Source: Thalassotalea hakodatensis
GTDB taxonomy: Bacteria; Pseudomonadota; Gammaproteobacteria; Enterobacterales; Alteromonadaceae
DNA: 64,000 nt
Direction of reading: 5' to 3'
Assembly (NCBI RefSeq): GCF_030295995.1
Contig: NZ_AP027365.1
Location: 3,380,066-3,444,065, forward strand
Shown: piece after piece, positions 278 through 51,046 of the stretch
How positions within the stretch are numbered: position 1 is the first letter of the stretch
How the letters are laid out: the number at the start of each line of letters is the position of its first letter
Notes under the pieces: generated by a model
Database searches by the model: none
Told to the model about the DNA's origin: nothing
The model's input: the letters and a program-made list of their open reading frames with translations, nothing else
Translations under genes and position numbers: made by a program

Positions 278-317
278 GTTTAGTTAAAAAGGCGAAAATC
301 GTCTTTTTAACTAAACA
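278..317. terminator. Bidirectional terminator between rdgC and the HDOD gene
   Basis: The arms tgtttagttaaaaaggcga and tcgtctttttaactaaaca are complementary apart from one G-T pair, with a tiny loop. A-rich and T-rich tracts sit inside the stem, so it can end transcripts from both sides. The stop codon of the minus-strand HDOD gene (307-309) lies within the right arm. Confidence 0.8.
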
Positions 318-1149
318 TATTCTTAACATCCTGATACATGTCTTTAAACTCATCTGACGACATAAAATCAATATCAGGTAATATTCCTTTGGCAACATAA
401 CTTTTTAATAATACCTCTTGTGTCGATTCATTTTTGAAAATGCCATTATAAATTGCGCCTGCACGGATAAAATCTAAATAATGTACTTCTGCGGGTAATA
501 CCGTTAAATCACTCCAATTGAGTACAATATCGGTAAATTCTTGTGATAACCCCCACGCAATGGTTATTTCAGCACCTATTTTATTTGAAAGCTTAATAAT
601 TGCTTGTTGCAAAAATGTTGGATTGGCGAACACATCAGGGTGATTCTCAGCTTCCGTTAATATGGGTAGCACACCAATGCTATGAATAAGCGCAGCTAAG
701 GTAAGAGTGTCTAATGTCAAAGGGCTGTGCTTATGATCGCGTTGATAAAATGTCATCAAAACCATAGCAACTGATGCGACCTCGATCGTTTTAGCCCACG
801 ATTTTTTCAAGTATAAAGAAACAATTTCATTTTCAGAAACAAACACCTGCTCTAACGCCATAGCTGTTGCAACACTTTTTATTTGTCTCAAACCAATACG
901 AGTGACAGCTTGATTGACGGTCTCGACTTTTACCCCTCGACCTAATATGGCACTGTTTGCGACTTTCAACATGCCCATTGACAGAGCAGGATCGTGTGCA
1001 ATTATATCGCTCATATCTCCTAGGTTAATTTGCGGATCATCTGCCGCTTCTCTTACCCTTAATGCAACTTCTGGCAGCGTCGGTAGTACAAGTGATTTTT
1101 GTTTAATTTTTTCAACAAGGATGGTGTACAACGCATTCTCTGTTCCCAT
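307..1149 (-). CDS. HDOD domain protein
   Basis: This 280-residue protein is a stand-alone HDOD domain. Visible features are the N-terminal LPTLPEVALRVREAADDP stretch, the D-x-A-L-S segment (DPALSMGMLKVANSA) and the alternating helices typical of this HD-related fold. HDOD proteins act in signal transduction in proteobacteria, often in motility, biofilm or c-di-GMP circuits, and usually lack the catalytic HD metal site. Here I see no HD dyad supporting phosphodiesterase activity. The ATG at 1149 follows an AGGGCG sequence about 8 bases upstream, which supports this start. It is transcribed alone, convergent to rdgC. Confidence 0.75.
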   Translation of the reverse strand: MGTENALYTILVEKIKQKSLVLPTLPEVALRVREAADDPQINLGDMSDIIAHDPALSMGMLKVANSAILGRGVKVETVNQAVTRIGLRQIKSVATAMALEQVFVSENEIVSLYLKKSWAKTIEVASVAMVLMTFYQRDHKHSPLTLDTLTLAALIHSIGVLPILTEAENHPDVFANPTFLQQAIIKLSNKIGAEITIAWGLSQEFTDIVLNWSDLTVLPAEVHYLDFIRAGAIYNGIFKNESTQEVLLKSYVAKGILPDIDFMSSDEFKDMYQDVKNMFS

Positions 1150-1703
1150 TTGTTACGCCCTATAAATAATTGTTAATCCATTTAAAAATAGCACACTATT
1201 TTAATGCGTGTAGTGCTTTCATCAACGTTTATCGATATTTATTTAATGAGCATTAGTTAAACTTGTCGCTTTGAATACAAATCAGTTAGAAACGCTTGTA
1301 GCAGGCAAAAGTTATCGTAATTTATTATATAATATTCATTGCACAGGGGGTTCGCCACCTTTATCATTAAGAATTCAGCTTATTCTCACACGCACGATGA
1401 AGACCTGTTCCCAATAATTTTTAATAATCTCCCATTTAAACAATTAGAGTGATAAGCTTGCATTAGTGATGATTAAAAAGATCTTTCCAAGACTTTCTTT
1501 ATCGCGACAAAGTAGAATAATAGAAACATCACTAAACCAAAAATTTAGTTGCATAGTGCAAAACCTAATCCATCACTTTTCGACCCTTCACTTGTAGCAA
1601 ATTAAAATTCCTCAGTGATCGCCAACAATAAAGTTTTGGTGAAACCAGCTTGAAATGTTCAAAGCTTTAAGTCTTTGCTTAGTAAAAATGCTAGTTTAAA
1701 AGG
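1150..1703. other. Gene-poor stretch at the distal edge of the island
   Basis: About 550 bases of AT-rich sequence with no convincing reading frame. It holds the upstream region of the HDOD gene (1150-1300) and, at 1494-1549, one copy of a 56-bp motif repeated at 3923-3978. Nothing else was recognised. Confidence 0.6.
1494..1549. repeat. 56-bp motif, copy 1
   Basis: The segment from tttctttatcgcgacaaag to ccaaaaatttagt matches 3923-3978 at 53 of 56 positions without gaps, in the same orientation. It ends in a short hairpin (ctaaa...tttag). Copy 1 lies 1.9 kb beyond the thyA-tail remnant. Copy 2 lies about 2.05 kb beyond the real thyA end if the IS is subtracted. The motif may therefore mark the distal end of each unit of the island. 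Confidence 0.75.
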
Positions 1704-1892
1704 TTATTTTGACAACTTAAACCACTTTAAAAAGTTTACATTCAGCGCATAAAGTATGAGGTAAATACCTATGGCAATGGCTCCAATGTGACTAAAAGTA
1801 TAACCTTGCTCCACATTAAAAAAGTTAAGGCCAATGCTCTCTGAATATATAAAAAAGACACCCCAAAAAAAACTTGGTAACCTGAAAATCAT
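1704..1892 (-). CDS. Small hypothetical membrane protein, 62 aa
   Basis: A 62-residue open frame whose product would be mostly membrane: a hydrophobic N-terminal half and a second clear segment (IGAIAIGIYLILYALNV) ending in a basic tail (FLKWFKLSK). The ATG at 1892 is preceded by ACGGGG at ribosome-binding distance. It is the last minus-strand frame in the accessory island. I recognise no family. A small immunity or accessory membrane protein is possible given the neighbours, but that is inference. Confidence 0.4.
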   Translation of the reverse strand: MIFRLPSFFWGVFFIYSESIGLNFFNVEQGYTFSHIGAIAIGIYLILYALNVNFLKWFKLSK

Positions 1893-1935
1893 GATATTAC
1901 CCCGTTATAGCTCTACAGTAGGCATTTGCCCCCAT

Positions 1936-2265
1936 TTAAAACCCCATAGAAAAGAAGCCAATAAAACCATTTGTTCGCAAAAAACCTTTAAAGCGCTCGC
2001 AGTTTTGATCTGTTTCAAACTGTTTTTGGGCTCCATATAAATTCCGGGAGCCTTTTTGAATCAGCATTTCCTTTATAGTTGGGCCTAATCTTTCTAATGC
2101 AAGCGCGGTATATGAAAGAGGGCTTAGATCACTTGCTAATTTATATGCTTTTCCATAATCTTTCTCAATGCAAGCTTGAAATGCCTTTTCTTTTTTTGCT
2201 CTATCGGATATTCCACTGGAAGAACTGCCGCCGCTAATTATACTTAACCTGTAGATTGAAAAAGT
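1936..2265 (-). pseudogene. Decayed reading frame, probably a split C-terminal domain
   Basis: A 110-codon open stretch has protein-like composition but no good start. Residues run from SGGSSSG, a linker-like start, through KEKAFQACIEKDYGKAY and SPLSYTALALERLGPTIK, with cysteines near both ends. Upstream in the same direction sits the zinc-ribbon/membrane protein (2365-2613), whose frame ends 100 bases earlier. The SGGSSSG linker would fit just after its transmembrane segment. At the 3' end, removing one T from the run before the stop would continue the frame to ...GFKWGQMPTVEL. I read this as the broken distal half of one gene, though it could be an intact gene with an unusual start. No family was recognised. 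Confidence 0.45.
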
Positions 2266-2364
2266 TTAGATGAAGAATAATCATATGAAATTTTTTATTA
2301 TTATAGGCACATTGAAACATTAATGATATTGACGGGCTTCTTAGGAAACGCAGTAGCATAATTT

Positions 2365-2613
2365 CTAGTAAAAGAAACTTGAGAGTAAGAGTAAAGTAAT
2401 GATTAACACAATAAAGAAAAAACAAACTCCAATTATGTTGTTCCCTTCTTGTTTTTGTTGGTGTTGCTCTTTAAATGCAGCTAACTGATCATCATTAAAA
2501 GCTGAGCAGTGGTTGCATTGTTTTAATGACTTTGCATAGTACAGCCCACACCTCTTGCAGCGCTTTTGTTTTAAAACCCTTAGTCTCCATGCAAAACTCA
2601 TTTCTATTGACAT
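2365..2613 (-). CDS. Zinc-ribbon membrane protein, possibly truncated
   Basis: The 82-residue product has an N-terminal two-knuckle zinc ribbon (CKRCG...CNHC, residues about 19-36), a short charged linker, and a strongly hydrophobic C-terminal segment (about 60-80) that should anchor it in the membrane. The ATG at 2613 follows AAAGG with 7-base spacing. The zinc site is complete. The protein ends immediately after the membrane segment, and the downstream frame (1936-2265) looks like a displaced C-terminal domain, so this may be the N-terminal part of a disrupted gene. Its role is unknown; it lies between a bacteriocin-like gene and the island edge. Confidence 0.5.
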   Translation of the reverse strand: MSIEMSFAWRLRVLKQKRCKRCGLYYAKSLKQCNHCSAFNDDQLAAFKEQHQQKQEGNNIIGVCFFFIVLIITLLLLSSFFY

Positions 2614-2691
2614 TATAAAGCCTTTGTATTTAATTTACTCATGGCCCCGAAAACTTATTTAGTTTGACGGGGCTATGTTGTAAAGCGACTA

Positions 2692-2871
2692 CTATTTCTT
2701 GTTGAGTCGCCTATATAACTCTAGTACAACCGCTGTTATTAAAAAGTAAGAGATAAATTCTAATATCCCACTTTTAAATCCTACGTATTTATCATACAAA
2801 GCGTATGATATTACCAATATAAATAATAGTAATAATATTTTTACGATAGTTACTAGAGTAATATTTTTCAT
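2692..2871 (-). CDS. Small two-segment membrane protein next to peptide A
   Basis: This 59-residue frame starts MKNITLVTIVKILLLLFILV and ends LYRRLNKK, with two hydrophobic segments (about 5-22 and 35-50) separated by a charged loop (YDKYVGFKSG). Its ATG (2869-2871) directly abuts the TAA of the double-glycine peptide gene (2872-2874), so translation is probably coupled. Small basic membrane proteins encoded directly behind class II bacteriocin or microcin genes are often immunity proteins, and that is the likely role here. No sequence family was recognised. A similarly placed 55-aa membrane protein follows the second peptide gene. Confidence 0.6.
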   Translation of the reverse strand: MKNITLVTIVKILLLLFILVISYALYDKYVGFKSGILEFISYFLITAVVLELYRRLNKK

Positions 2872-3048
2872 TTAAAACCACATAATTTTTAAAGCGTATG
2901 CAGCAGCTCCTAGCGCAGCCCCACCAAGACCAAAGCGAGCACCAGAAGAGACTGCACCAACAAACCCTTCCATTGTTGCTTCGCCCCAACAATATTTAGC
3001 ACAACCACCATCTACTTGTTCAATTTCATTTACGTTTAATTTTCGCAT
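2872..3048 (-). CDS. Double-glycine-leader bacteriocin-like peptide precursor A
   Basis: The 58-residue precursor has a 15-residue leader, MRKLNVNEIEQVDGG, of the classical double-glycine type removed by C39-peptidase ABC exporters. The predicted mature peptide is 43 residues. It begins CAKYC, allowing a small disulfide ring, and continues as a Gly/Ala-rich hydrophobic stretch with GxxxG-like spacing (FGLGGAALGAAAYALK), ending KIMWF. This resembles class II bacteriocins and microcins. The start is the ATG at 3048, because GGAG lies 9 bases upstream and the leader then matches peptide B; the frame is open for a further 23 codons upstream. No C39 exporter is in the window. The killing function is inferred, not shown. 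Confidence 0.75.
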   Translation of the reverse strand: MRKLNVNEIEQVDGGCAKYCWGEATMEGFVGAVSSGARFGLGGAALGAAAYALKIMWF

Positions 3049-3499
3049 AATATTACGCTCCATGAATCCAGCATTGTCTAATAAATAACACTGGTTTGTT
3101 AATTCGCTCAACCTCACTATGAATACGAGCGATTAATAAGGCAGACTTTACTTTCTTACGCGAACGTTCACTAAAGGCAGCCGCTTTTATTTCCTGAAAA
3201 ACATTTAATATGAAATCTGACAGAAAAATCTTCATACACTTGATTGCAATACTGGTTTCTCATCATCAGAAATCAGTACGGTAATCCATATTCAGAAGAT
3301 AGAGTCAAAGGTAGAATGGACAACTAAAGGTGGCAATTTAAAAACATTGTAAAAAGCTTGTATAAATGTTGGCTAGGCATTTAGCGCATTAAAATGCCTC
3401 ATATATTGTCAACATTGTATCTTCAGTCAAATGAATGAGAAATAGAGAACGTTTAACCGCTAAACACTAAAAGGGTAAGCAATGGCTACATGGTGCTGG
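3005..3499. repeat. 495-bp thyA-tail/leader repeat, copy A
   Basis: This segment aligns without gaps to 6765-7259, at a constant offset of 3760 bp, with scattered substitutions and a more divergent patch near 3100-3190. On the minus strand it runs from the last 13 thyA codons, through about 410 bases of intergenic DNA containing an 8-bp-stem hairpin (3375-3399), to the leader of peptide A. Similarity ends at the Gly-Gly codons, so the two mature peptides are unrelated in sequence. Confidence 0.9.
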
Positions 3500-3501
3500 C
3501 A
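3460..3501 (-). pseudogene. Remnant of the thyA 3' end
   Basis: Read on the minus strand, the sequence encodes [13 protein letters not shown] followed by TAG. The true ThyA C-terminus (end of 7220-8071) is [13 protein letters not shown] followed by TAG, and the surrounding DNA also matches. Only this tail is present here, so it is a scar of duplication or of insertion at thyA. Confidence 0.85.
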
Positions 3502-3545
3502 GTATATTTCAAGACCTGTTAATACTTACTGTTAGAGCCGCCCCG

Positions 3546-3914
3546 TTAACTTCTCAAACGTTTAGGTGTGAACTTCACAAGACCAATAATGGAAAATAAT
3601 AAAACCAGGTAGCCTTCAATAAAATCACCCTCTCGAAATAACCAAATTGCGAGAAAAACGCCAAACAATTCGGCAATAAAGCCAATGAGCGCCCACTTAT
3701 TCTTAAACGATAAATCCCAAGATACATTAATACTTCTTAAAAAGTTGAATATACTGATTGTTGATTTTTCCATAGGAATTACATTATTTTCATCATCAGT
3801 TATTTTGATTTCTACCTTAAACATTTTTGAAGTTGTATCGATAACTAGTTCACCATCATCTGTCATAATTGAAAATTTTTCTTTTATTTTTATGATGTTA
3901 TTATCGCGATTCAC
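3546..3914 (-). CDS. Hypothetical membrane protein, 122 aa
   Basis: The 122-residue frame begins at a GTG (3914) and has a soluble N-terminal half of mixed charged beta-like sequence (about 1-70). Two hydrophobic segments follow (about 76-92 and 98-113), then a basic tail, KFTPKRLRS. I recognise no family. It sits between the thyA-tail remnant and the IS copy, so IS insertion at 3979 has removed whatever lay upstream of its 5' region. The absence of a clear ribosome-binding site before the GTG lowers confidence. An immunity or accessory role for the neighbouring peptides is only a possibility. Confidence 0.45.
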   Translation of the reverse strand: MNRDNNIIKIKEKFSIMTDDGELVIDTTSKMFKVEIKITDDENNVIPMEKSTISIFNFLRSINVSWDLSFKNKWALIGFIAELFGVFLAIWLFREGDFIEGYLVLLFSIIGLVKFTPKRLRS

Positions 3915-3922
3915 TCTAAATA

Positions 3923-3978
3923 TTTCTTTACCGCGACATAGTAGAATAATAGAAACATCGCTAAACCAAAAATTTAGT
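3923..3978. repeat. 56-bp motif, copy 2, abutted by the IS
   Basis: Matches 1494-1549 at 53 of 56 positions. The IS3-family element begins at the very next base, and the final four bases (tagt) are the element's target duplication. Confidence 0.75.
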
Positions 3979-3992
3979 TGTCCACTTCCCCA

Positions 3993-4835
3993 TTAATGAC
4001 ACAGTTCTAAATTAGAATTTTCCAGTTTTTCTCGGTAAGCTGCCGGCGGCAGGTTACCCAGACTCTCATGTGTTCTTTCTTCGTTATAATCCAATCGCCA
4101 GAACCAAGCCATATCTCGCACTTGGCTGAGATTCTCAAACAAGTAGGCATCAAGAAACTCTCTGCGGAATGAACCGTTAAAGCGTTCAACAAAGCCATTT
4201 TGCTGTGGCTTACCTGGCTGGATATATATCAGTTCAATATTATGGATCTCACACCAATCTGTTAGTGTCGCAGAGATAAGTTCTGGGCCATTGTCTACAC
4301 GCAACTGTTTGGGCAACCCACGCTCATCTTTTAACTGCTCTAACACGCGAACTACACGGCCAGCGGGCAACGAGGTGTCCACTTCTATAGCGAGGCACTC
4401 TCGCGTTCCTTCGTCCACCACATTCAACGTTCTGAATCGTTTACCGCAATACAATGTGTCATGCATAAAATCGAGCGCCCATTGGTGGTTGGCTTGCTCC
4501 TGCACTTCTAAAGGCTGAGCAATTCGCTTGGGTAGCACACGTTTAGTTCTTCGTTTTAGATTCAACCCCATCTGGCAATACACGCGATAAACGCGCTTAT
4601 GGTTGAACGGAAAGCCTTTGAAGCGCATTCGGCCAAAACACTTCCAGAAGCCTGCTCGTGGCGACTTTTCAAGTACGGCATTGATAGCATCAATGACAGC
4701 AGCATCTGCTTTACGCCAGTCTCGTTCAGGGCGATAAAAGGTCGAACGGCCAATGCCAACAAACAGACAAGCCCTTACGATACTTAGCCCCGCACCAACC
4801 ATTACGCTGACGCATTCTCGTTTATCCGCTGTCAC
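3993..4835 (-). CDS. IS3-family transposase, OrfB (catalytic part)
   Basis: The 280-residue frame carries the rve integrase domain with its DDE triad: D in WALDFMHD, D in LRVDNGPE and E in NGFVERFNGSFR. An HTH_21-like region precedes it (SPRAGFWKCFGRMRFKG). In IS3 elements OrfB is normally made as an OrfAB fusion through a -1 frameshift. Here the -1 frame runs straight through from the A6G site at 4841-4847 into this frame, so the ATG at 4835 is probably not the main start. The catalytic residues are all present. Confidence 0.9.
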   Translation of the reverse strand: MTADKRECVSVMVGAGLSIVRACLFVGIGRSTFYRPERDWRKADAAVIDAINAVLEKSPRAGFWKCFGRMRFKGFPFNHKRVYRVYCQMGLNLKRRTKRVLPKRIAQPLEVQEQANHQWALDFMHDTLYCGKRFRTLNVVDEGTRECLAIEVDTSLPAGRVVRVLEQLKDERGLPKQLRVDNGPELISATLTDWCEIHNIELIYIQPGKPQQNGFVERFNGSFRREFLDAYLFENLSQVRDMAWFWRLDYNEERTHESLGNLPPAAYREKLENSNLELCH

Positions 4836-5116
4836 CAGCCCTTTTTTGCGAAAAGCTCCTTAATCGCATGATTTTCTAGACTGACATCCGCAAACATCTT
4901 TTTAAGCTTGGCGTTTTCTTCTTCCAGCTCCTTCAACCGTTTGACGTCAGAGGCTTCCATCCCACCGTATTTGGACTTCCAGTTGTAATAGGTTGCACTA
5001 CTGATACCGTGTTGACGGCACACTTCCTCGACTTTTCTACCAGCATCAACTTCTTTTAATACTGCGATGATCTGAGATTCTGTATAGCGTGATTTTTTCA
5101 TAGTCGTCTCCTGCAT
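4832..5116 (-). CDS. IS3-family transposase, OrfA (HTH part)
   Basis: The product has an HTH_Tnp_1 domain (SRYTESQIIAVLKEVDAG, VEEVCRQHGISSATYYNWK). A leucine-zipper-like coiled coil follows (KRLKELEEENAKLKKMF), which multimerises the transposase. The frame overlaps the start of orfB by four bases, and its last codons contain the slippery site GCA AAA AAG. The natural start may be the internal ATG of MKKSRYTES, five codons in. It binds the terminal inverted repeats and forms the OrfAB fusion with the catalytic domain. Confidence 0.9.
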   Translation of the reverse strand: MQETTMKKSRYTESQIIAVLKEVDAGRKVEEVCRQHGISSATYYNWKSKYGGMEASDVKRLKELEEENAKLKKMFADVSLENHAIKELFAKKGW

Positions 5117-5282
5117 TAATCATTACAGAAAACTCTAATTATGTCTGTCTCAGTTTAAGGGAAGTGGACATAGTAAGGTATACTTTTCACCTCTAAAATC
5201 AAATGTGTATTTCACAAAGCCTCCTAAGAAATCGCCCTAACTTTTGTTCAAGTGATGTTTTCATGTTTTAAACAAAGTGACT

Positions 5283-5457
5283 TAGTGCCTGTTGATTTTT
5301 CACGTTTATTTTTGCAGCAGTTTAATAGTATTTAGACAAGGCATTGCGATTAACGTGTGGTTATTCCACATGAAAAAGCAATAACGACGTATAAATGACA
5401 AAAAACGCTGCCCTTTGGGTTCAACAACATTTAATCTCGAAAGATCAACACCCCCTA
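5283..5457. mobile_element. Short MITE-like element, family shared with 46391-46661
   Basis: About 175 bp ending in related inverted repeats (tagtgcctgttgatttttc at the left, complement of gaaagatcaacaccccct at the right), with TA at both borders. Read on the minus strand it matches the element at 46391-46661 in several blocks: GTTGATCTTTC, GTTGAACCC, GGAATAAC-ACACG, TGCCTTGT-TAAATAC and CAAAA-TAAAC-TGAAA-ATCAACA. It lacks the 98-bp hairpin of the longer copy. It has no coding capacity; a 62-codon minus-strand frame here is a by-product. Confidence 0.55.
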
Positions 5458-5474
5458 GTGAAAGAGTAAGATAA

Positions 5475-6209
5475 TTAAAAGTAAAATAATTCAATGATAA
5501 CCAAACTATTAAGCAATATATGAATTACAATCGTATAGCTAGTATTTTGGGTTTTATAACGAACAAAGCCTAACAATAAACCTAAAAAGAAAATATAAAT
5601 TAAAGTGGACACATTGTCATATTGCGTATGAATAGCAGTAAAGATAAACGTTGTAATGACTAATGCTCCAATATCCCCTAGTTTAGTCTGCTTTATTTTG
5701 CTATAAAACCAACCACGAAAGATTAACTCTTCAATAATGGGGGAAACAAAAGAAGTAGTGGCGATAATAAGCACAAACATAGCTAAACTATTATTAGCGG
5801 CTTGCACATCAAGCATAAAATTTTCAGTTGTTAGATTTAGTACAACACCCAGTAATGTTGATACACACACAAAAATAAAAACAACAGCTAACCATTTCAT
5901 TAACTCTTGGCGATTAATTGAATGAACAGCCCAGTAATCTAATCGTTTCGTCCAATTGTTTTCATTTGTTGCCTTAACCAAGATGTATATATTTATTAAT
6001 GATGCCATTAGCGACAATTTTAATAAAACAGGAATACTATTAACCCAATCATAAAAAGCTTCAGGAGAATAGTTATCCCCTTGTTGGATACCAAAATAAA
6101 CATCAAAAAAAATACTAAGTACAGTTGGCGTTAAAATTAATAAAACTAATAACCAAAGTGATGTATTAAATAAACTCGTCAATGAGTTCTTGGTTTGTGT
6201 ACTATTCAT
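5475..6209 (-). CDS. CPBP-family intramembrane metalloprotease (Abi/immunity type)
   Basis: A multipass membrane protein of 244 residues with the three CPBP (Abi, Pfam PF02517) motifs intact: EELIFRG (Glu160-Glu161, Arg165), the histidine in FTAIHTQ (His194), and HILLN (His230, Asn234). Members include Rce1-type CAAX proteases and the bacterial Abi proteins encoded in bacteriocin loci, where they confer self-immunity. I chose the ATG at 6209 (MNSTQTKN); a start six codons earlier is also open. Downstream of a double-glycine peptide and a small membrane protein on the same strand, an immunity or peptide-maturation role is likely. Confidence 0.85.
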   Translation of the reverse strand: MNSTQTKNSLTSLFNTSLWLLVLLILTPTVLSIFFDVYFGIQQGDNYSPEAFYDWVNSIPVLLKLSLMASLINIYILVKATNENNWTKRLDYWAVHSINRQELMKWLAVVFIFVCVSTLLGVVLNLTTENFMLDVQAANNSLAMFVLIIATTSFVSPIIEELIFRGWFYSKIKQTKLGDIGALVITTFIFTAIHTQYDNVSTLIYIFFLGLLLGFVRYKTQNTSYTIVIHILLNSLVIIELFYF

Positions 6210-6409
6210 TATTACTTCTGTTGTCAAAATTGTGAATACATTGTCGATTAGATTTAAAGTTGTTTGAATACCATACCTGCACTGCCGCTGGTAAAACTAA
6301 TACTCATTTTCTGTATATCATTAACCGTACTAATTTTAAGTCTCTAATTGAATAAAAATAAGCCGATAATAATTCCATATGATCTTTTTAAAGCAATCAA
6401 CTGCCCTTC

Positions 6410-6577
6410 TTAAAAAAAAGAATATGCAAAAGGCAAAAATAGAGCGGCAATAAAACTTAGCAAGACTCCCAATATATAAGAAAAAAACACAATATCTGCT
6501 TTTCTTAAAACGGTAACTTTCTCATCGAAGTACACGGCTAAAATCAACATACAAAGAGATACTAAATATTCAAACAC
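6410..6577 (-). CDS. Small two-segment membrane protein next to peptide B
   Basis: A 55-residue frame starting at GTG (6577): VFEYLVSLCMLILAVYF, then a charged loop (DEKVTVLRKAD), then a second hydrophobic segment ending LFLPFAYSFF. It follows peptide B by 45 bases, with a hairpin between them. Size, topology and position resemble the 59-aa protein that follows peptide A, though I see no clear sequence identity. An immunity protein is the best guess. The start codon is uncertain because no strong ribosome-binding site is visible. Confidence 0.5.
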   Translation of the reverse strand: MFEYLVSLCMLILAVYFDEKVTVLRKADIVFFSYILGVLLSFIAALFLPFAYSFF

Positions 6578-6585
6578 CTTATTCT

Positions 6586-6619
6586 ATTAATCCCCTCAAT
6601 TTTAAGTTGAAGGGTTAAT
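6586..6619 (-). terminator. Hairpin between peptide B and its downstream gene
   Basis: attaatcccctcaa pairs imperfectly with ttgaagggttaat around a short loop, 4 bases after the peptide B stop codon. There is no strong U-tract, so it is more likely a processing or partial-termination element that makes the peptide mRNA more abundant than the downstream gene. Confidence 0.5.
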
Positions 6620-6622
6620 CTA

Positions 6623-6808
6623 CTAGAACAACTTACGGTAATAATAACGGGCGCTTGCTGAAGCTGAAGCCCAAGATTTCCTAAGATGATCATTAATTCC
6701 TTTTGCTCCGCCTACTGACTCATATAAATATGCACCAACCGCTCCCCAACCTAAACCTCTAACACCGCCATCTACTTTTTCAATTTCATTTACGTTTAAT
6801 TCACGCAT
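6623..6808 (-). CDS. Double-glycine-leader bacteriocin-like peptide precursor B
   Basis: The 61-residue precursor has the leader MRELNVNEIEKVDGG, differing from peptide A at only two positions. The predicted mature peptide of 46 residues is unrelated to A. It starts VRGLGWGAVGAYLYESVGG, with GxxxG-type spacing, then a basic/aromatic C-terminal half (LRKSW...ARYYYRKLF), and has no cysteine. The ATG at 6808 follows GGAG by 9 bases. Two different cores behind nearly the same leader suggest one shared exporter, which is not in this window. The two could be separate bacteriocins or a two-peptide pair; the sequence does not decide. Confidence 0.75.
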   Translation of the reverse strand: MRELNVNEIEKVDGGVRGLGWGAVGAYLYESVGGAKGINDHLRKSWASASASARYYYRKLF

Positions 6809-7259
6809 AATATTACGCTCCATGTATCCAGCATTGTCTAATAAATAACACTGGGTTGTTAATTTGCTCAATCTCACCATGAGAATGAGCGGTTAATTAA
6901 GCCGACATTAGTAGTTTTGAATACCGTAAACTCAAGTCAGCTGCTCTTATCTCCTGAAAAACATTTAATATGAAATCTGACAGAAAAATCTTCATACACT
7001 TGATTGCAATACTGGTTTCTCATCATCAGAAATCAATACGGTAATCCATATTCAGAAGATAGGGTCAAAGGTAGAATGGACAATTAAAGGTGGCAATTTA
7101 AAAACATTGTAAAAAGCTTGTATAAATGTTGGCTAGGCATTTAGCGCATTAAAATGCCTTATGTATCGCCAACATTGTATTTTCAGTGAAAGGAATGAGA
7201 AATAGAGGGCGTTTAACCGCTAAACACTAAAAGGATAAGCAATGGCTTCATGATGTTGA
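6765..7259. repeat. 495-bp thyA-tail/leader repeat, copy B
   Basis: The partner of 3005-3499, ungapped. This copy includes the genuine thyA stop (7220-7222), the hairpin aggcattt...aaatgcct (7135-7159), and the leader codons of peptide B. Both copies also keep an ATG-started short frame, MKIFLSDFILNVFQEI (at 3235 and 6995), that diverges afterwards. I regard it as part of the conserved untranslated region rather than a gene. Confidence 0.9.
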
Positions 7260-8071
7260 TAGCCTTTAACCGTAAAGTCGTCCGTTGTTACCCATGTTTC
7301 CAAATCTTTTAACGATTTAATATCAGGATTAATTTCAAGCTGCGGTGAAGCAAACGGTTCTCTGGTTAATTGTACGTCACGTAGTAACGGCAGTTGATCT
7401 TCATAAATATGCGCATTGACTATTTTATGGTAAGCCTTACCAGGTTTATGACCAGTAATTTGTGCCATTAACGCTAAAAAGGTAAATACTTGAACTTGAT
7501 TGAAATTTAAACCCAGCGGCACATCGCACGAACGTTGGTAACTGGTTAAATAAAGCGTATCACCTAACAAAGAAAAGGTGTGAGTATGCATACAAGGGCG
7601 TAAACAACCTAAATCAAATTCTCCAGGATTATAAAAGGTAATAATTTCACCACGATCATCAATACCGTTAGCAAGGTTATCAACCACTTTTTTAAGCTGA
7701 TCTAACGGGGTACCGTCAGGCTTTTGCCATGCACGTCCTTGCACACCATAAACCCTACCCATATCATCTTCACCTTTGCGATAAGGGTTATTCAACCAGG
7801 CGTCATTATCATTTGCATTGGCGTTCCAGGTGTTACAGCCTATTTCACGAAATTGTGCAGCATTACTGTAACCACGTAAATAACCAAGCAATTCAGCGAT
7901 GGCGGCTTTATAAAAACTTTTTCGTGTTGTAATTAGCGGAAATTTATTACCAGCCACATCGTACTCTAAATCTGCGTTGATCAACGTTAAGCACTTTTTA
8001 CCTGTGCGCTCATTCGTTACCCACTGCCCTTGTTCGATAATGTTTTTACATAACGCTAAATATTGTTTCAT
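7220..8071 (-). CDS. thyA: Thymidylate synthase
   Basis: A 283-residue ThyA that methylates dUMP to dTMP using 5,10-methylene-tetrahydrofolate. The catalytic cysteine is in [12 protein letters not shown] (Cys160). The dUMP-phosphate arginines are near residue 21 and in [15 protein letters not shown], and the C-terminal AYPFSV is typical. Length is normal for the longer ThyA class. The 3' end is the boundary of the accessory island, and its last 13 codons are repeated at 3460-3501. It lies 56 bases behind the TSUP gene on the same strand; the usual neighbour lgt is missing. Confidence 0.95.
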
Positions 8072-47605: not shown

Positions 47606-47679
47606 AAATTTTTCAATTCTACTTATAAAGAGTACTACGACCATAGTGCGAAGTTGACATCAATATAATCAAACTGATG

Positions 47680-48030
47680 TTATTGCGTTAAAAAATGTAT
47701 CGCATTTACAATTTCATCTGGGCGCTGAAACACCGCCATATGATCACTATTAGTGAGAGGAATATATTGCCCTAATGATTGTTCACTCAACTGCTGACTC
47801 CATTGACTACCTTCACTTTGCTATTTTATTAGGCCATCAATATACTCAGGTTCAGCATTATCAATTTCATTTTGTTCAAAGTCAGTATCAATAACACTAA
47901 TAGGAACAGCTGTTGACATATTGCTTTGTCTAACCAGCTCAAGACCATCATGGTAATTCATAATCTCTTTAGCGCGCGTTAGCTGCTTATTAATATTCAA
48001 ACGATTTTGGCTAATTAATTCAAAATATTC
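47680..48030 (-). pseudogene. Broken copy of the 3' end of the 49229-51046 hydrolase gene
   Basis: The DNA matches the last 350 bases of the hydrolase gene at high identity. The duplication continues about 35 bases past the stop (repeat units 47645-48030 and 49194-49579, offset 1549). One substitution turns a Trp codon (TGG at 49370-49372) into TAG here (47821-47823). After 48030 the match breaks up into a short deleted version (attagctcgcgtat). The remnant cannot be translated into anything useful. Confidence 0.9.
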
Positions 48031-48056
48031 TAATTTCTCAAAACTTAATTAGCTCG

Positions 48057-48116
48057 CGTATATAAAAATAAAAACTTTGTCAAATGTCCTTGACAAAGTT
48101 TTTATTTTTATATACG
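48057..48116. repeat. Perfect 27-bp inverted repeat with 6-base loop
   Basis: The arms at 48057-48083 and 48090-48116 are exactly complementary (from cgtatataaaaataaaaac to ...gtttttatttttatatacg) around the loop atgtcc. On the plus strand the stem is followed by a T-rich run. It can act as a very strong terminator or form a cruciform. It lies 34 bases before the start of the Cys-rich peptide gene and just at the broken edge of the hydrolase remnant. Confidence 0.9.
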
Positions 48117-48149
48117 TTTTTTTGTTTTTTATAAATTTAAGGATAAATT

Positions 48150-48317
48150 ATGAAAAAAACATTTCTAGCAATATCAATACTACTTTTTTCTGCTAATACG
48201 ATCGCTATGGCTCAAACATGTAAATGTTCTAGTGGAAGTATGGTCGTAGAAATAGAAGGTGATATGGTTTACATGTCATGCACTGAAGGTGGTCGACTAC
48301 ATTGTGTTATAGATTAA
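48150..48317 (+). CDS. Small secreted Cys-rich protein, 55 aa
   Basis: A signal peptide (MKKTFLAISILLFSANTIAMA, cleavage about residue 21) is followed by a 34-residue mature peptide with four cysteines (TCKCSSGS, YMSCTEGG, LHCVID), probably two disulfides. AAGGAT sits before the ATG at good distance. No family recognised; a small envelope or secreted effector is possible. It precedes the 238-aa membrane-anchored protein gene by 57 bases on the same strand. Both lie between the two copies of the hydrolase tail. Confidence 0.6.
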   Translation: MKKTFLAISILLFSANTIAMAQTCKCSSGSMVVEIEGDMVYMSCTEGGRLHCVID

Positions 48318-48374
48318 TAGTTTAGCATTTCAGGGAGAGATTGTTTTACTCCCTTATTTTAAGGAGATTCATTA

Positions 48375-49091
48375 ATGTATAAAGGATCGTATACAGCTAT
48401 ATTTATATGTCTTGTAATTTTATTTATTGGTACTTTTTATTATTACAGTCAAAAAGTCAATAATGATGTAACTATTGCTAACGAGAATAATATCAGCACT
48501 GACACACCAGCGTTAAAATCAAGTACTCCCCCTGATTTATTGAATCCTTCGAAACATCCTTCACTGAAAGAGAAAAAAGCTACACAAAAAAAAGAAACGC
48601 TTGTCAAAAATACTGTAGCAGAAACAGATGCCCACGAGGGTGATAAGTCTTATAAAAAGTTTCTTAATCAGGAAAAGTTCAGGTCAAACATTACAGTGGA
48701 TTCGGTTTATTTAGATGATTCTGAAGTAGTTCAACAGAAAGCTATATTTAAATCATTAATAAATAATGACTTTTCATTGCTTGTGGAAAAATTGGACTCT
48801 ATAAAGGAGTCTAAACAAGCATTCGAGCGTGAAATGAAAATTCAGCACTACTTGACTAACTCGCTAGATTTTACTCATTATAATGAAAAGTATTCATGTG
48901 CAGGTAAAGTTTGCGCTGTAACCTTTATTTTTGAAAATAAATCAAATAAAAAACAACTTGAATCATTCGGTGATTTTGACTCTAACTTTTCTTTCGGTAA
49001 CTTTTCAATTAATGAAAGTGGCGAAAATGTATACAAAGGCGTATTTATAAAAACTGACGACCCATCAAAACTCGCAGTTTCTACAAAATAG
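48375..49091 (+). CDS. Hypothetical membrane-anchored protein, 238 aa
   Basis: One N-terminal membrane segment (about 7-25) precedes a low-complexity Ser/Thr/Lys-rich linker (to about 90) and a small mixed domain at the C-terminus. Two cysteines sit in YSCAGKVCAVTFIF. The domain is predicted to be outside the cytoplasm, where the pair could form a disulfide. The ATG follows AAGGAG. I recognise no family. With the 55-aa peptide gene upstream it forms a two-gene insertion between the direct repeats. Confidence 0.6.
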   Translation: MYKGSYTAIFICLVILFIGTFYYYSQKVNNDVTIANENNISTDTPALKSSTPPDLLNPSKHPSLKEKKATQKKETLVKNTVAETDAHEGDKSYKKFLNQEKFRSNITVDSVYLDDSEVVQQKAIFKSLINNDFSLLVEKLDSIKESKQAFEREMKIQHYLTNSLDFTHYNEKYSCAGKVCAVTFIFENKSNKKQLESFGDFDSNFSFGNFSINESGENVYKGVFIKTDDPSKLAVSTK

Positions 49092-49228
49092 TCCAAAAGA
49101 ATGCTTAATTACTGAAACTGAAAAATACAATAATAAAAGGAGCCGGTGACAAGTGAGCGCTAAACTTGCCCGATGCTCCTTAACATCGAGCAGAGTGCGA
49201 AGTTGACATCAATATAATCAAACTGCTT

Positions 49229-51046
49229 TTATTGGATTAAAAAATTTATCGCATTTACAATTTCATCTGGGCGCTGAAACACCGCCATGTGGTCACTATT
49301 AGTGAGAGGAATATATTGCCCTAATGATTGTTCACTCAACTGCTGACTCCATTGACTACCTTCACTTTGCCATTTTATTAGGCCATCAATATACTCAGGT
49401 TCAGCATTATCAATTTCATTTTGTTCAAAGTCAGTATCAATAACACTAATAGGAACAGCTGTTGATATATTGCTTTGTCTAACCAGCTCAAGATCATCAT
49501 GGTAATTCATAATTTCTTTCGCTCGTGTTATTTGTTTATTAATCTTTAAACGATTTTGGCTAATTAAATCAAAATATTGCCAATCCATTAGCTCACTGTA
49601 CTTCGCGGGTATCAATGTCTCAACCGTCAGCCTTTCTTTACTGAGCTTGTCTGCTGAACTCGCCGTCATTTTTCCTGCACTAATATAGTTGAGCAATTCA
49701 TCACCCAAGCCACGATACCAAGTGACAGGCCAATCCTGATAAAAGCTGATTGAATGTGGCAGTAAAATATCTGGATCTACCCATAACATTCCCATTAGCT
49801 CGCTTTGGCTGGTTTTATCCGGCATTTGTTGCCACAAGTGAGCAAGAATATTACTGCTAGAAAAGCTCAACATCACAATGCGCTCTTCATTTAACGCGAG
49901 CAACGTTTTATCCAGCGCACCAACAAATGACGAATAAGAAGGTTGTGCTATATCACTACTAAAACCATTACCAAAACGCTCGATAACGTGCACTCGATGT
50001 GTTTTAGCAATTAATGGTTGCAATAATGCAAACCACGCACTGTCACTATGATAATTTTTATTAAACCCTGACAGTAAAATAACGGCGGGACCGGTATGTT
50101 CTAATCCCATGCTACGTACATGAACTAATTCTTCTTGCTGTGATTGCTCAACACGATATACGCTTGAAAAACTATCTAACTGTTTGTCACTGACTGAATC
50201 AAAAAAATCAATCACTTCAATCGAAGTATCAAAATCGCTGAACTGCCATGAATGTTGTCCTGACTGTATAGCGACCAGTTTATTAATATTGGTGTCATTC
50301 TGGTATACGTGTTCTTGAATACCCTCTTGCTCAACGATTTCTCTCTCTGTATCAATACCATTCTGCTTAGCAATCAAATCGATTGCTAGTTCACTTCCGA
50401 TAAGTCCAAAATTACTATGTACTAAACCTTGATATGGCAGCGTTTTGTCAGCCGTTCCATGAACCATCATGTAATTAGTAGAATGTTGAACCTGGCACGA
50501 TAATGATAATTGCTCTGACATAGGTGAAGCAACAGAAACGAGGCCTTTAAACTGTAGGTTACTGTTACACATTAAATTTTGCGTAAACAAGCCACCTTGA
50601 GAATAACCAACGGCATATAATTCTTCGTTAATAATATTAAATTTTTGTTTCACATCAGTGACAACATCTTCGACAAAAGCCAGATCATTAATACCCAAGC
50701 GATGTGGTTTATTACAGTCACAACCTTCGTTCCATTCTTCAACTTTTGATTGCGGATATACAACAATATAATCTTTGGAAAATGTTGCCAACTTGGTCAT
50801 TGCTTGCATACCCTTAGCACTACCACCTGAACCATGAAATGCTAACAGTAATTTATAGGCTTTATTTGGCTCTATCCCCTCATTAGGCGGTGATAAGTAA
50901 TAATCTCGCCCATTAATCGATGATTTAACGACCCCATTATTATCAGTTGGTGGTAAAGGGTCATTATCATTGTTGGTTCCATTACAGCCAATCATTATTA
51001 AGCTAATGAAAATTATACTGAGTGGTAATACAAATTTAGATTGCAT
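49229..51046 (-). CDS. Two-domain alpha/beta-hydrolase lipoprotein
   Basis: A 605-residue lipoprotein (MIGC, lipid Cys21). The N-terminal domain is of the PHB-depolymerase/feruloyl-esterase type: LLLAFHGSGGSAKGM oxyanion region, nucleophile in AVGYSQGGLF (Ser149), and SGQHSWQF with the catalytic histidine near 263. A second alpha/beta-hydrolase-like domain (about 310-605) has VILLSGFN and MLSFSSSNILAHL in place of the GxSxG nucleophile elbow, so it may be inactive. Divergent to the CadC-like regulator gene with a 129-bp gap, which suggests control by it. Its 3' end is duplicated at 47645-48030. Confidence 0.85.
   Translation of the reverse strand: MQSKFVLPLSIIFISLIMIGCNGTNNDNDPLPPTDNNGVVKSSINGRDYYLSPPNEGIEPNKAYKLLLAFHGSGGSAKGMQAMTKLATFSKDYIVVYPQSKVEEWNEGCDCNKPHRLGINDLAFVEDVVTDVKQKFNIINEELYAVGYSQGGLFTQNLMCNSNLQFKGLVSVASPMSEQLSLSCQVQHSTNYMMVHGTADKTLPYQGLVHSNFGLIGSELAIDLIAKQNGIDTEREIVEQEGIQEHVYQNDTNINKLVAIQSGQHSWQFSDFDTSIEVIDFFDSVSDKQLDSFSSVYRVEQSQQEELVHVRSMGLEHTGPAVILLSGFNKNYHSDSAWFALLQPLIAKTHRVHVIERFGNGFSSDIAQPSYSSFVGALDKTLLALNEERIVMLSFSSSNILAHLWQQMPDKTSQSELMGMLWVDPDILLPHSISFYQDWPVTWYRGLGDELLNYISAGKMTASSADKLSKERLTVETLIPAKYSELMDWQYFDLISQNRLKINKQITRAKEIMNYHDDLELVRQSNISTAVPISVIDTDFEQNEIDNAEPEYIDGLIKWQSEGSQWSQQLSEQSLGQYIPLTNSDHMAVFQRPDEIVNAINFLIQ

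What the first reader, a model, noticed from the sequence alone, without database searches (positions are those of the whole stretch)
1494..7260. Array of bacteriocin-like modules accreting at the 3' end of thyA
Two units lie head to tail on the minus strand. Each has a thyA 3' tail, about 410 bp of conserved upstream DNA, a double-glycine-leader peptide gene and a small two-segment membrane protein. Each also has further accessory genes (CPBP protease in unit B, zinc-ribbon membrane protein in unit A) and a shared 56-bp motif. Subtracting the IS, the distance from thyA tail to 56-bp motif is about 1.9 kb (A) and 2.05 kb (B). This looks like a cassette array in which new peptide/immunity units enter beside thyA and push older ones outward, where they decay. 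I know of no described system of this form.
Basis: partly seen in the sequence, partly recalled or inferred. Interest (0 to 1): 0.82.

Follow-up and report, generated by a model that had tools for sequence, protein, structure and literature searches.

The report
Bacteriocin arrays built on gene tails
Marine bacteria of the Thalassotalea group keep exchangeable toxin-peptide-plus-protection units in rows behind ordinary housekeeping genes, and extra units are often preceded by a copy of the end of that housekeeping gene, a likely footprint of how the units were added and swapped.

Summary
Behind thyA lie two head-to-tail units, each with a thyA 3' end (39 bp, 90% identical, in the inner copy), a ~400-bp upstream region and a double-glycine leader (495-bp repeat, 90%), but unrelated cores. 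Relatives support an array of exchangeable units. One relative has a rhomboid unit and two further thyA tails. cca in the same genome carries a second array with cca tails: its outermost unit is found in four genomes, while inner units differ even between two genomes of one species. Partial gene-tail copies occur at 13 genes in 11 of 42 leader loci, against 1 of 574 and 0 of 1082 control genes; in 20 further loci, 3 (one a paralogue). Other anchors are HlyD, C39, AraC-type, obgE and amylase-family genes. Between two conspecific genomes a divergent tract starts 22 bp before the end of thyA. Best reading: additive recombination at an anchor gene's 3' end founds tails; homologous exchange over tail-leader repeats shuffles units; one distant HlyD-C39 exporter serves them. 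It resembles T6SS, Rhs and CDI displaced-immunity arrays but uses housekeeping genes as handles. The 56-bp motif is a gene fragment. Strict outward pushing is not upheld. Killing, export and the insertion step are untested.

The parts
7220..8071 (-). thyA, thymidylate synthase; anchor gene whose 3' end is repeated
   Evidence: Pfam PF00303 257.9 bits
6764..7260 (-). repeat copy B: last 41 bp of thyA, 3' UTR, upstream region, leader codons
   Evidence: 495 bp at 90% to copy A
3004..3500 (-). repeat copy A, including the thyA tail copy 3460-3498 (39 bp, 89.7%)
6623..6808 (-). unit B double-glycine peptide (61 aa)
   Evidence: PF10439 at 16.6 bits, below cut-off; leader profile E 3e-14 (this leader is in the profile)
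6410..6577 (-). unit B membrane protein (55 aa), probably a truncated VanZ-like protein
   Evidence: 82% to residues 40-94 of a 153-aa ORF in G004
5475..6227 (-). unit B CPBP intramembrane protease, putative immunity
   Evidence: PF02517 71.7 bits
5171..5215 (-). 5' part of the distal gene of unit B, cut by the IS
   Evidence: frame continuous at this site in G001
3979..5170 (-). insertion sequence with two ORFs (one with an rve integrase core, Pfam), TAGT on both sides
   Evidence: two further copies at 99.6-100% in 43 searched loci plus the rest of the window
3546..3978 (-). 3' part of the distal gene of unit B, containing the 56-bp motif
2872..3048 (-). unit A double-glycine peptide (58 aa)
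   Evidence: PF10439 at 22.1 bits, below cut-off; leader profile E 5e-14 (this leader is in the profile)
2692..2871 (-). unit A 59-aa ORF, membrane-protein-like by eye, candidate immunity
   Evidence: ORF only, same in G001
2365..2613 (-). unit A 82-aa CxxC/CxxC protein; similar 81-aa ORF in the G004 rhomboid unit
1704..1892 (-). 62-aa ORF, shared with G003 and G004 in other positions
   Evidence: 90-93% DNA identity
1494..1551 (-). remnant of the distal gene ('56-bp motif')
   Evidence: 95% over 58 bp
5568..7241 (-). tract divergent between two genomes of one species, starting inside the thyA 3' end
   Evidence: 77 differences in 1674 bp; thyA nt 1-830 3, next 396 bp 0
307..1149 (-). HDOD-domain gene on the far side of the array
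   Evidence: PF08668 114.9 bits; on the thyA contig in G002 and G003, on another contig in G001 and G004

Best explanation
These are arrays of double-glycine bacteriocin modules (peptide gene plus membrane immunity gene such as CPBP, rhomboid, VanZ-like or small membrane protein), exported in trans by one HlyD-C39 exporter elsewhere in the genome. New modules are founded by additive recombination at the 3' end of an anchor gene: homologous crossover inside the anchor gene on one side, a non-homologous join inside the recipient's own gene end on the other. The anchor stays intact and its old 3' tail is displaced beyond the insert. Once present, the repeated tail, 3' UTR, upstream region and leader (0.2-0.7 kb) serve as homologous handles through which modules are gained, lost and swapped without harming the anchor. 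Additive events would be favoured because older immunity genes are kept. Shown: arrays, tails, swapped cores, mosaic breakpoints in the anchor gene, exporter present. Inferred: the founding join, natural transformation as route, bacteriocin and immunity function, selection.
For: Swapped cores behind constant tails and leaders at thyA in G000, G001, G003, G004. Second array at cca in the same genome, outer unit shared and inner units different between conspecific G000 and G001. Tail copies at 13 genes in 11 of 42 leader loci (371 genes), 0 of 1082 and 1 of 574 in controls; copies of gene 5' ends 3, 0 and 0. Further set: 3 of 20 new loci (192 genes), one of them a lipoprotein paralogue. Tail lengths differ: 39, 105, 129, 137, 168, 170, 177, 367, 478 bp and about 107 bp. 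Divergent tract beginning 22 bp before the end of thyA; at cca no difference from -1012 to 616, then 30 from 617 to 1416, eight of them one run. A same unit|tail junction followed by different units. One-unit or one-operon inserts with a single displaced tail: AraC-type gene, thyA in G040, obgE with a 103-bp perfect repeat in G661. Exporter with HlyD and C39-ABC genes at G000 ~3.92 Mb.
Against: No founding event was seen with donor and recipient both known. Some displaced tails are close to their own genome's anchor gene, as a local duplication would be (cca in G004 95%, AraC 96-97%). Tail age does not fall regularly outward (G004 middle copy 85.5%, outer copy 90%, over different lengths). Units A and B share a distal gene fragment, which tandem duplication plus core swap would also give. 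Most leader loci show no tail (31 of 42; 17 of 20 new ones, 18 without the paralogue). Divergent patches between G000 and G001 are not confined to anchor ends: the 8 kb before thyA has 81 differences, about ten in the last 100 bp, and patches of 80-95% lie upstream of cca. thyA is rarely an anchor outside the genus: in 120 thyA loci the leader pattern was found in two further genomes.
Confidence: 0.6

Rival explanations
1. Tandem duplication inside one genome: a stretch from the thyA 3' end to the distal gene was duplicated, and one core was later replaced by homologous exchange with relatives.
For: Units A and B share both ends: the tail-upstream-leader repeat and the 58-bp distal gene fragment. 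The G004 cca tail and the AraC tails are closest to their own species' gene.
Against: AraC, obgE and G040-thyA inserts have one cargo and one extra tail, with no second cargo copy seen. Adjacent cores look unrelated. The AraC and amylase-family inserts lie in reverse orientation.
Confidence: 0.25
2. Site-specific integration: an integrase uses the 3' ends of thyA, cca and others as attachment sites and rebuilds the gene end, as tRNA-targeting islands do.
For: Displaced gene ends are the classic mark (recalled). G043 has a 162-bp thyA tail behind an insert with an integrase N-terminal fragment (Phage_int_SAM_4, 32.6 bits), and G040 has a 168-bp thyA tail.
Against: Apart from the IS transposase, no recombinase was noticed in the bacteriocin inserts whose ORFs were listed (read by eye, most not scanned with Pfam). 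Tail starts differ within one gene (39, about 107, 168 bp in thyA; 137, 367, 478 bp in cca). Sixteen junctions printed side by side show no common motif by eye. Many unrelated anchor genes.
Confidence: 0.1
3. The tails are passengers of the upstream region: the conserved block is kept because it carries the anchor's terminator and the peptide promoter, and the tail is incidental.
For: The block holds a 39-bp segment also present in G002, where no peptide was found. The obgE repeat includes what reads as a terminator hairpin.
Against: Does not explain how the extra copy arose, the reverse-orientation inserts, or long decayed cca tails.
Confidence: 0.05

Closest known systems
T6SS immunity-gene arrays of Vibrio cholerae (Kirchberger 2017, PMC5361080; passages read)
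   Same: Successive toxin/immunity modules displace older ones; homologous plus homology-facilitated illegitimate recombination proposed; 3' effector fragments shifted back
   Different: Anchor is the secretion cluster and its effector gene, and old effectors are replaced. Here peptide genes stay with the older units in the arrays seen, and housekeeping genes (thyA, cca, obgE) are anchors
Orphan CDI and Rhs toxin/immunity modules (PMC4927057; passages read)
   Same: Tandem displaced modules that carry sequence homologous to the upstream gene and could recombine with it
   Different: The repeated sequence is part of the toxin gene itself. Here the tail belongs to an unrelated gene and is not joined to the peptide gene
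Gram-negative double-glycine bacteriocin loci such as mcbABCI of Moraxella catarrhalis (PMC2761928; seen only in a search listing; details partly recalled)
   Same: Exporter genes, double-glycine peptide, small immunity gene
   Different: A single locus as I recall it. Here several units in trans to one exporter, in arrays with gene tails
Integron cassette arrays (recalled; also compared in the passages of PMC5361080)
   Same: Ordered arrays, a variable end next to a fixed gene
   Different: No integrase or shared recombination site noticed among the units

Membership tests
Double-glycine (class II) bacteriocins | leader ending in GG before a variable core | tested here: met
   leader profile E 3e-14 and 5e-14 (both leaders are in the profile); L4, E8, G14, G15 invariant in 14 leaders
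Double-glycine (class II) bacteriocins | curated Pfam cut-off of PF10439 | tested here: not met
   22.1 and 16.6 bits against 27.1; no NCBIfam hit at E 0.01 for five peptides
Double-glycine (class II) bacteriocins | C39 exporter in the genome | tested here: met
   one C39 match, 127.7 bits, downstream of an HlyD-type gene; leader recognition not tested
Double-glycine (class II) bacteriocins | killing and specific immunity | not testable with these tools
   needs bench work
Displaced toxin/immunity arrays (T6SS, Rhs, CDI) | different modules in tandem behind one anchor, with anchor sequence repeated | tested here: met
Displaced toxin/immunity arrays (T6SS, Rhs, CDI) | anchor is the toxin or its delivery gene | tested here: not met
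   thyA, cca, AraC-type, obgE and amylase-family anchors; met only for HlyD and C39
Integron cassette array | integrase and common recombination site | tested here: inconclusive
   no integrase noticed in the listed ORFs and no common junction motif by eye; attC models not run
Gene-3'-end integrative element | fixed attachment boundary in the gene | tested here: not met
   tail starts vary within thyA and within cca
Gene-3'-end integrative element | element-borne integrase | tested here: inconclusive
   none noticed by eye in the inserts listed; only a fragment in G043, in whose insert I found no leader peptide

The most novel reading that the evidence does not exclude
A dedicated, integron-like but recombinase-free acquisition system: bacteriocin units of this family are inserted preferentially at 3' ends of a small set of housekeeping genes (thyA, cca, obgE-folA), often leaving a gene-tail repeat that then works as a cassette boundary for continual exchange between strains.
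Probability: 0.15. Interest if true: 0.85.

Novelty: new variant of a known kind. Interest (0 to 1): 0.62.

Why it matters
Displaced toxin/immunity arrays are known for T6SS, Rhs and CDI, where the repeated sequence belongs to the weapon itself. Here the handle is often an unrelated housekeeping gene, the cargo is small secreted-type peptides, and the footprint (a partial gene tail) is easy to find by computer. That gives a marker for additive acquisition events and makes the proposed one-sided homologous route testable by counting junctions in strain collections. It also suggests where new bacteriocins and immunity types, including possible rhomboid-type partners, may be found.

Tried and rejected
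Rejected: chance repeats. The 56-bp motif as a recombination site (it lies in a coding frame). Phage carriage of the unit B peptide: 13 pattern matches in viral contigs, none a relative (one peptide tried). Defence-system relatives: 0 of 6 proteins in PADLOC. Strict age gradient of tails: not seen. The C39 fragment in the G004 cca array was first read as a broken end of foreign DNA; since exporter operons sit behind cca-type genes in other genera, it may equally be a remnant of an ancestral local exporter. Literature: no paper held all of 'double-glycine leader', 'thyA' and 'bacteriocin'; the ten papers listed (of 103) have no occurrence of 'rhomboid'; the titles and abstract starts listed do not mention housekeeping-gene tails in bacteriocin arrays (full texts not read, passages of two papers only).

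Counting notes: my notebook says 12 genes in 10 loci; recounting one search gives 13 genes in 11 loci. The Fisher test used 12 (p 1e-4 against the genome sample, 7e-8 against controls); loci from related genomes are not independent, and three cca loci were known before the scan. One gene (S9 peptidase, 62 bp, 85%) and one older HlyD match (72%) are among the 13. One of the 42 loci (L282) holds only a weak leader match (E 0.04). The control set is 109 of 119 thyA loci: four were removed because they had shown leaders or tails (L038, L143, L178, L165), the rest because they were 8 kb or shorter; L019 (same species) was left out. L281 (thyA tail, no leader) is but not in the counts. Three of 23 new leader clusters were not fetched (two at contig ends, one second cluster of a genome).
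Full report
WHAT IS THERE. The window lies in a one-contig genome of 4.28 Mb. Behind thyA (7220-8071, minus) follow two units. Unit B: repeat copy 6764-7260, peptide 6623-6808, a probably truncated VanZ-like protein 6410-6577, CPBP protease 5475-6227, and a distal gene cut by an insertion sequence (3979-5170; rve transposase). Unit A: repeat copy 3004-3500 beginning with 39 bp of thyA end, peptide 2872-3048, 59-aa ORF 2692-2871, CxxC protein 2365-2613, 62-aa ORF 1704-1892, and a 58-bp remnant of the same distal gene (1494-1551). Searches support these elements. Beyond lies an HDOD-domain gene (307-1149), present in all five genus genomes: on the thyA contig in the window genome, G002 and G003, on another contig in G001 and G004.

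RELATIVES AT thyA. G001 has the same units, but an insertion sequence of the same kind sits elsewhere; its two ends lie on two contigs, in the distal gene and in the upstream region of unit A. G004 (two contigs, presumably joined) has the window's core 1 first, then a unit behind a 39-bp thyA tail with a new peptide and a rhomboid protease (59 bits), then a thyA tail of about 107 bp by BLAST (a little longer in the alignment, with two single-base gaps) and a VanZ-like gene (20.4 bits, below the cut-off of 30.1). G003 has one upstream region with another peptide and a CPBP gene (26.7 bits), and a second leader without a tail. In G002 I found no tail copy and no leader there, only a 39-bp block of the upstream region and a CPBP-like ORF. 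Units therefore vary while tails and leaders stay. Outside the genus thyA is a rare anchor: in 120 thyA loci (80, 40, some of one genome) the leader pattern appeared in G040 and G068 only.

A SECOND ARRAY IN THE SAME GENOME. A search with the repeat found leaders behind cca (polyA-polymerase head domain, the name cca is recalled). In G000, G001, G003 and G004 the same outer unit occurs (peptides AALILW.. and/or GLMREIG.. and a CPBP protease); in G004 it is on a contig that starts inside the array, not linked to cca in the assembly. G003 has only that unit. G000 and G001, of one species, carry different inner units in front of it, with cca tails of 367 bp (80%) and 137 bp (82%); G004 has a 478-bp tail at 95%. 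The junction 'X1 end | cca tail' is the same in G000 and G004, but X2 follows in one and the outer unit in the other. The order 'Y2, piece of a C39 exporter, cca tail' is shared by G001 and G004 (in G001 only 42 bp of the piece matches), and again different units follow. Modules are thus reshuffled both next to the gene and at inner tails.

BREAKPOINTS. Aligning G000 with G001: thyA nucleotides 1-830 differ at 3 sites; from nucleotide 831 of 852 to 2504 there are 77 differences in 1674 bp; the next 396 bp have none, and unit A to the window edge 3 in 3377. The 8 kb before thyA has 81 (1.0%), about ten in the last 100 bp. At cca there are none from -1012 to 616 and 30 from 617 to 1416, eight of them one run behind the stop. 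Further patches of 80-95% identity lie upstream of cca, so divergent tracts are not confined to anchor ends. Still, both array imports begin inside the anchor gene's 3' part, which is the most direct evidence for homologous exchange anchored there.

HOW GENERAL. With a profile of 14 leaders, 27 of 157 family genomes (E up to 1e-4) and 45 of 395 (E up to 1e-5) have a match; in an order-wide sample 8 of 394 (E up to 1e-5). In 33 of 53 survey loci both an HlyD-type and a C39 exporter gene are found, with the variable peptide/immunity slot usually between them. I scanned genes of at least 150 aa for partial 3' copies 0.3-10 kb downstream: 13 genes in 11 of 42 leader loci (371 genes), 1 of 574 in 0.8 Mb sampled from this genome (72% identity, an efflux-pump paralogue by eye), 0 of 1082 in 109 control loci; the window itself gives 2 of 40, thyA and one more. 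Copies of 5' ends: 3, 0, 0 and 0. In 20 new loci 3 of 192 genes had such copies, of which one is a tandem lipoprotein paralogue, so the rate outside the discovery set is lower. The cleanest case is obgE in G661: an operon (HlyD, peptide, 158-aa ORF, CPBP, C39) between obgE and folA, flanked by a 103-bp perfect direct repeat that holds the last 41 bp of obgE and the sequence behind it. In G058 four units follow HlyD, three of them behind a 129-bp HlyD tail at 96-97%. In G000 and G001 a peptide plus CPBP unit lies in reverse orientation behind an AraC-type gene, with a 170-177-bp tail on the far side; in G001 the peptide frame has a stop. In G547 peptide units in reverse orientation lie between an alpha-amylase-family gene and a 115-bp copy of its end. 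Of 53 survey loci, 9 lie downstream of a cca-type gene (one of these on a 26% match at a contig edge; a tenth is divergent), 6 beside folA (three of them between obgE and folA), 2 behind thyA.

HOW IT MOST LIKELY WORKS. One-cargo inserts with a single displaced tail argue for additive insertion rather than plain tandem duplication. Tail starts that vary within one gene, and the absence of a noticed recombinase in the inserts I listed (by eye, apart from the IS), argue against a classical integrase. A one-sided homologous crossover with a non-homologous join on the other side, as proposed for T6SS immunity arrays (PMC5361080, passages read), explains both. Afterwards the tail-leader repeats allow ordinary homologous exchange, and a crossover anywhere in the repeat leaves thyA whole. 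The peptides are probably exported by the HlyD-C39 pair at about 3.92 Mb, the only C39 match in the genome at E 0.001. Function as bacteriocin and immunity rests on leader, gene context and family knowledge, not on a test.

AGAINST THIS READING. Most leader loci have no tail. Some tails are closest to their own genome's gene. Tail identity does not fall outward in a regular way. Units A and B share a distal gene fragment, as tandem duplication would give. At thyA the inner, not the outer, core is the one shared with G004. Divergent tracts also occur elsewhere between G000 and G001. No founding event with a known donor was found, and the G004 and G001 arrays have contig gaps.

NOVELTY. The kind (displaced toxin/immunity arrays) is known. 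The variant (double-glycine peptide units with housekeeping-gene tails as handles, at several genes) did not show in the listings of nine literature searches, which cover open-licence PubMed Central only.

Noticed in passing
window 47638-51046: A second gene-tail duplication in the window: a 605-aa alpha/beta-hydrolase-type gene (49229-51046, minus) has a 392-bp copy of its end at 47638-48029 (94%), with a reverse-oriented insert of a 238-aa and a 55-aa ORF without Pfam match at E 0.01.
   Followed up: partly
window 1546-1557: Unit A reads TAGT-TGCA-TAGT where unit B carries the insertion sequence with TAGT on both sides and TG..CA ends; it looks like a leftover of an excised copy, but the sequence beyond does not match unit B.
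   Followed up: no
G100, G069, G016, G026: thyA is in two pieces: 13-36 kb apart in three genomes, on two contigs in G026, with 6-17 codons present in both pieces; large inserts inside thyA are likely.
   Followed up: no
L281 7838-7997 (G043): thyA tail of 162 bp (88%) behind an insert in which I found no leader peptide and which holds an integrase N-terminal fragment, so the thyA end also takes other cargo.
   Followed up: partly
L103 6930-7892, L099 8882-9832, L262 6671-7579: Rhomboid-type proteases (Pfam over cut-off in the first two, the third by 32% similarity to the first) sit next to leader peptides; the two Pfam-scored ones are not alike by BLAST. Possible immunity or maturation partners.
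   Followed up: partly
L252 (G039), L255 (G073), L341 (G547): Larger repeats of the same plan: whole HlyD genes three times, or a second cca-type match starting at residue 64 (in L255 followed by a second exporter operon; in L341 it lies behind the C39 gene).
   Followed up: partly
family survey: Two very different thyA types (about 68-100% and about 33-39% identity to the query among the full-length matches listed) alternate among genera, which suggests gene replacement.
   Followed up: no
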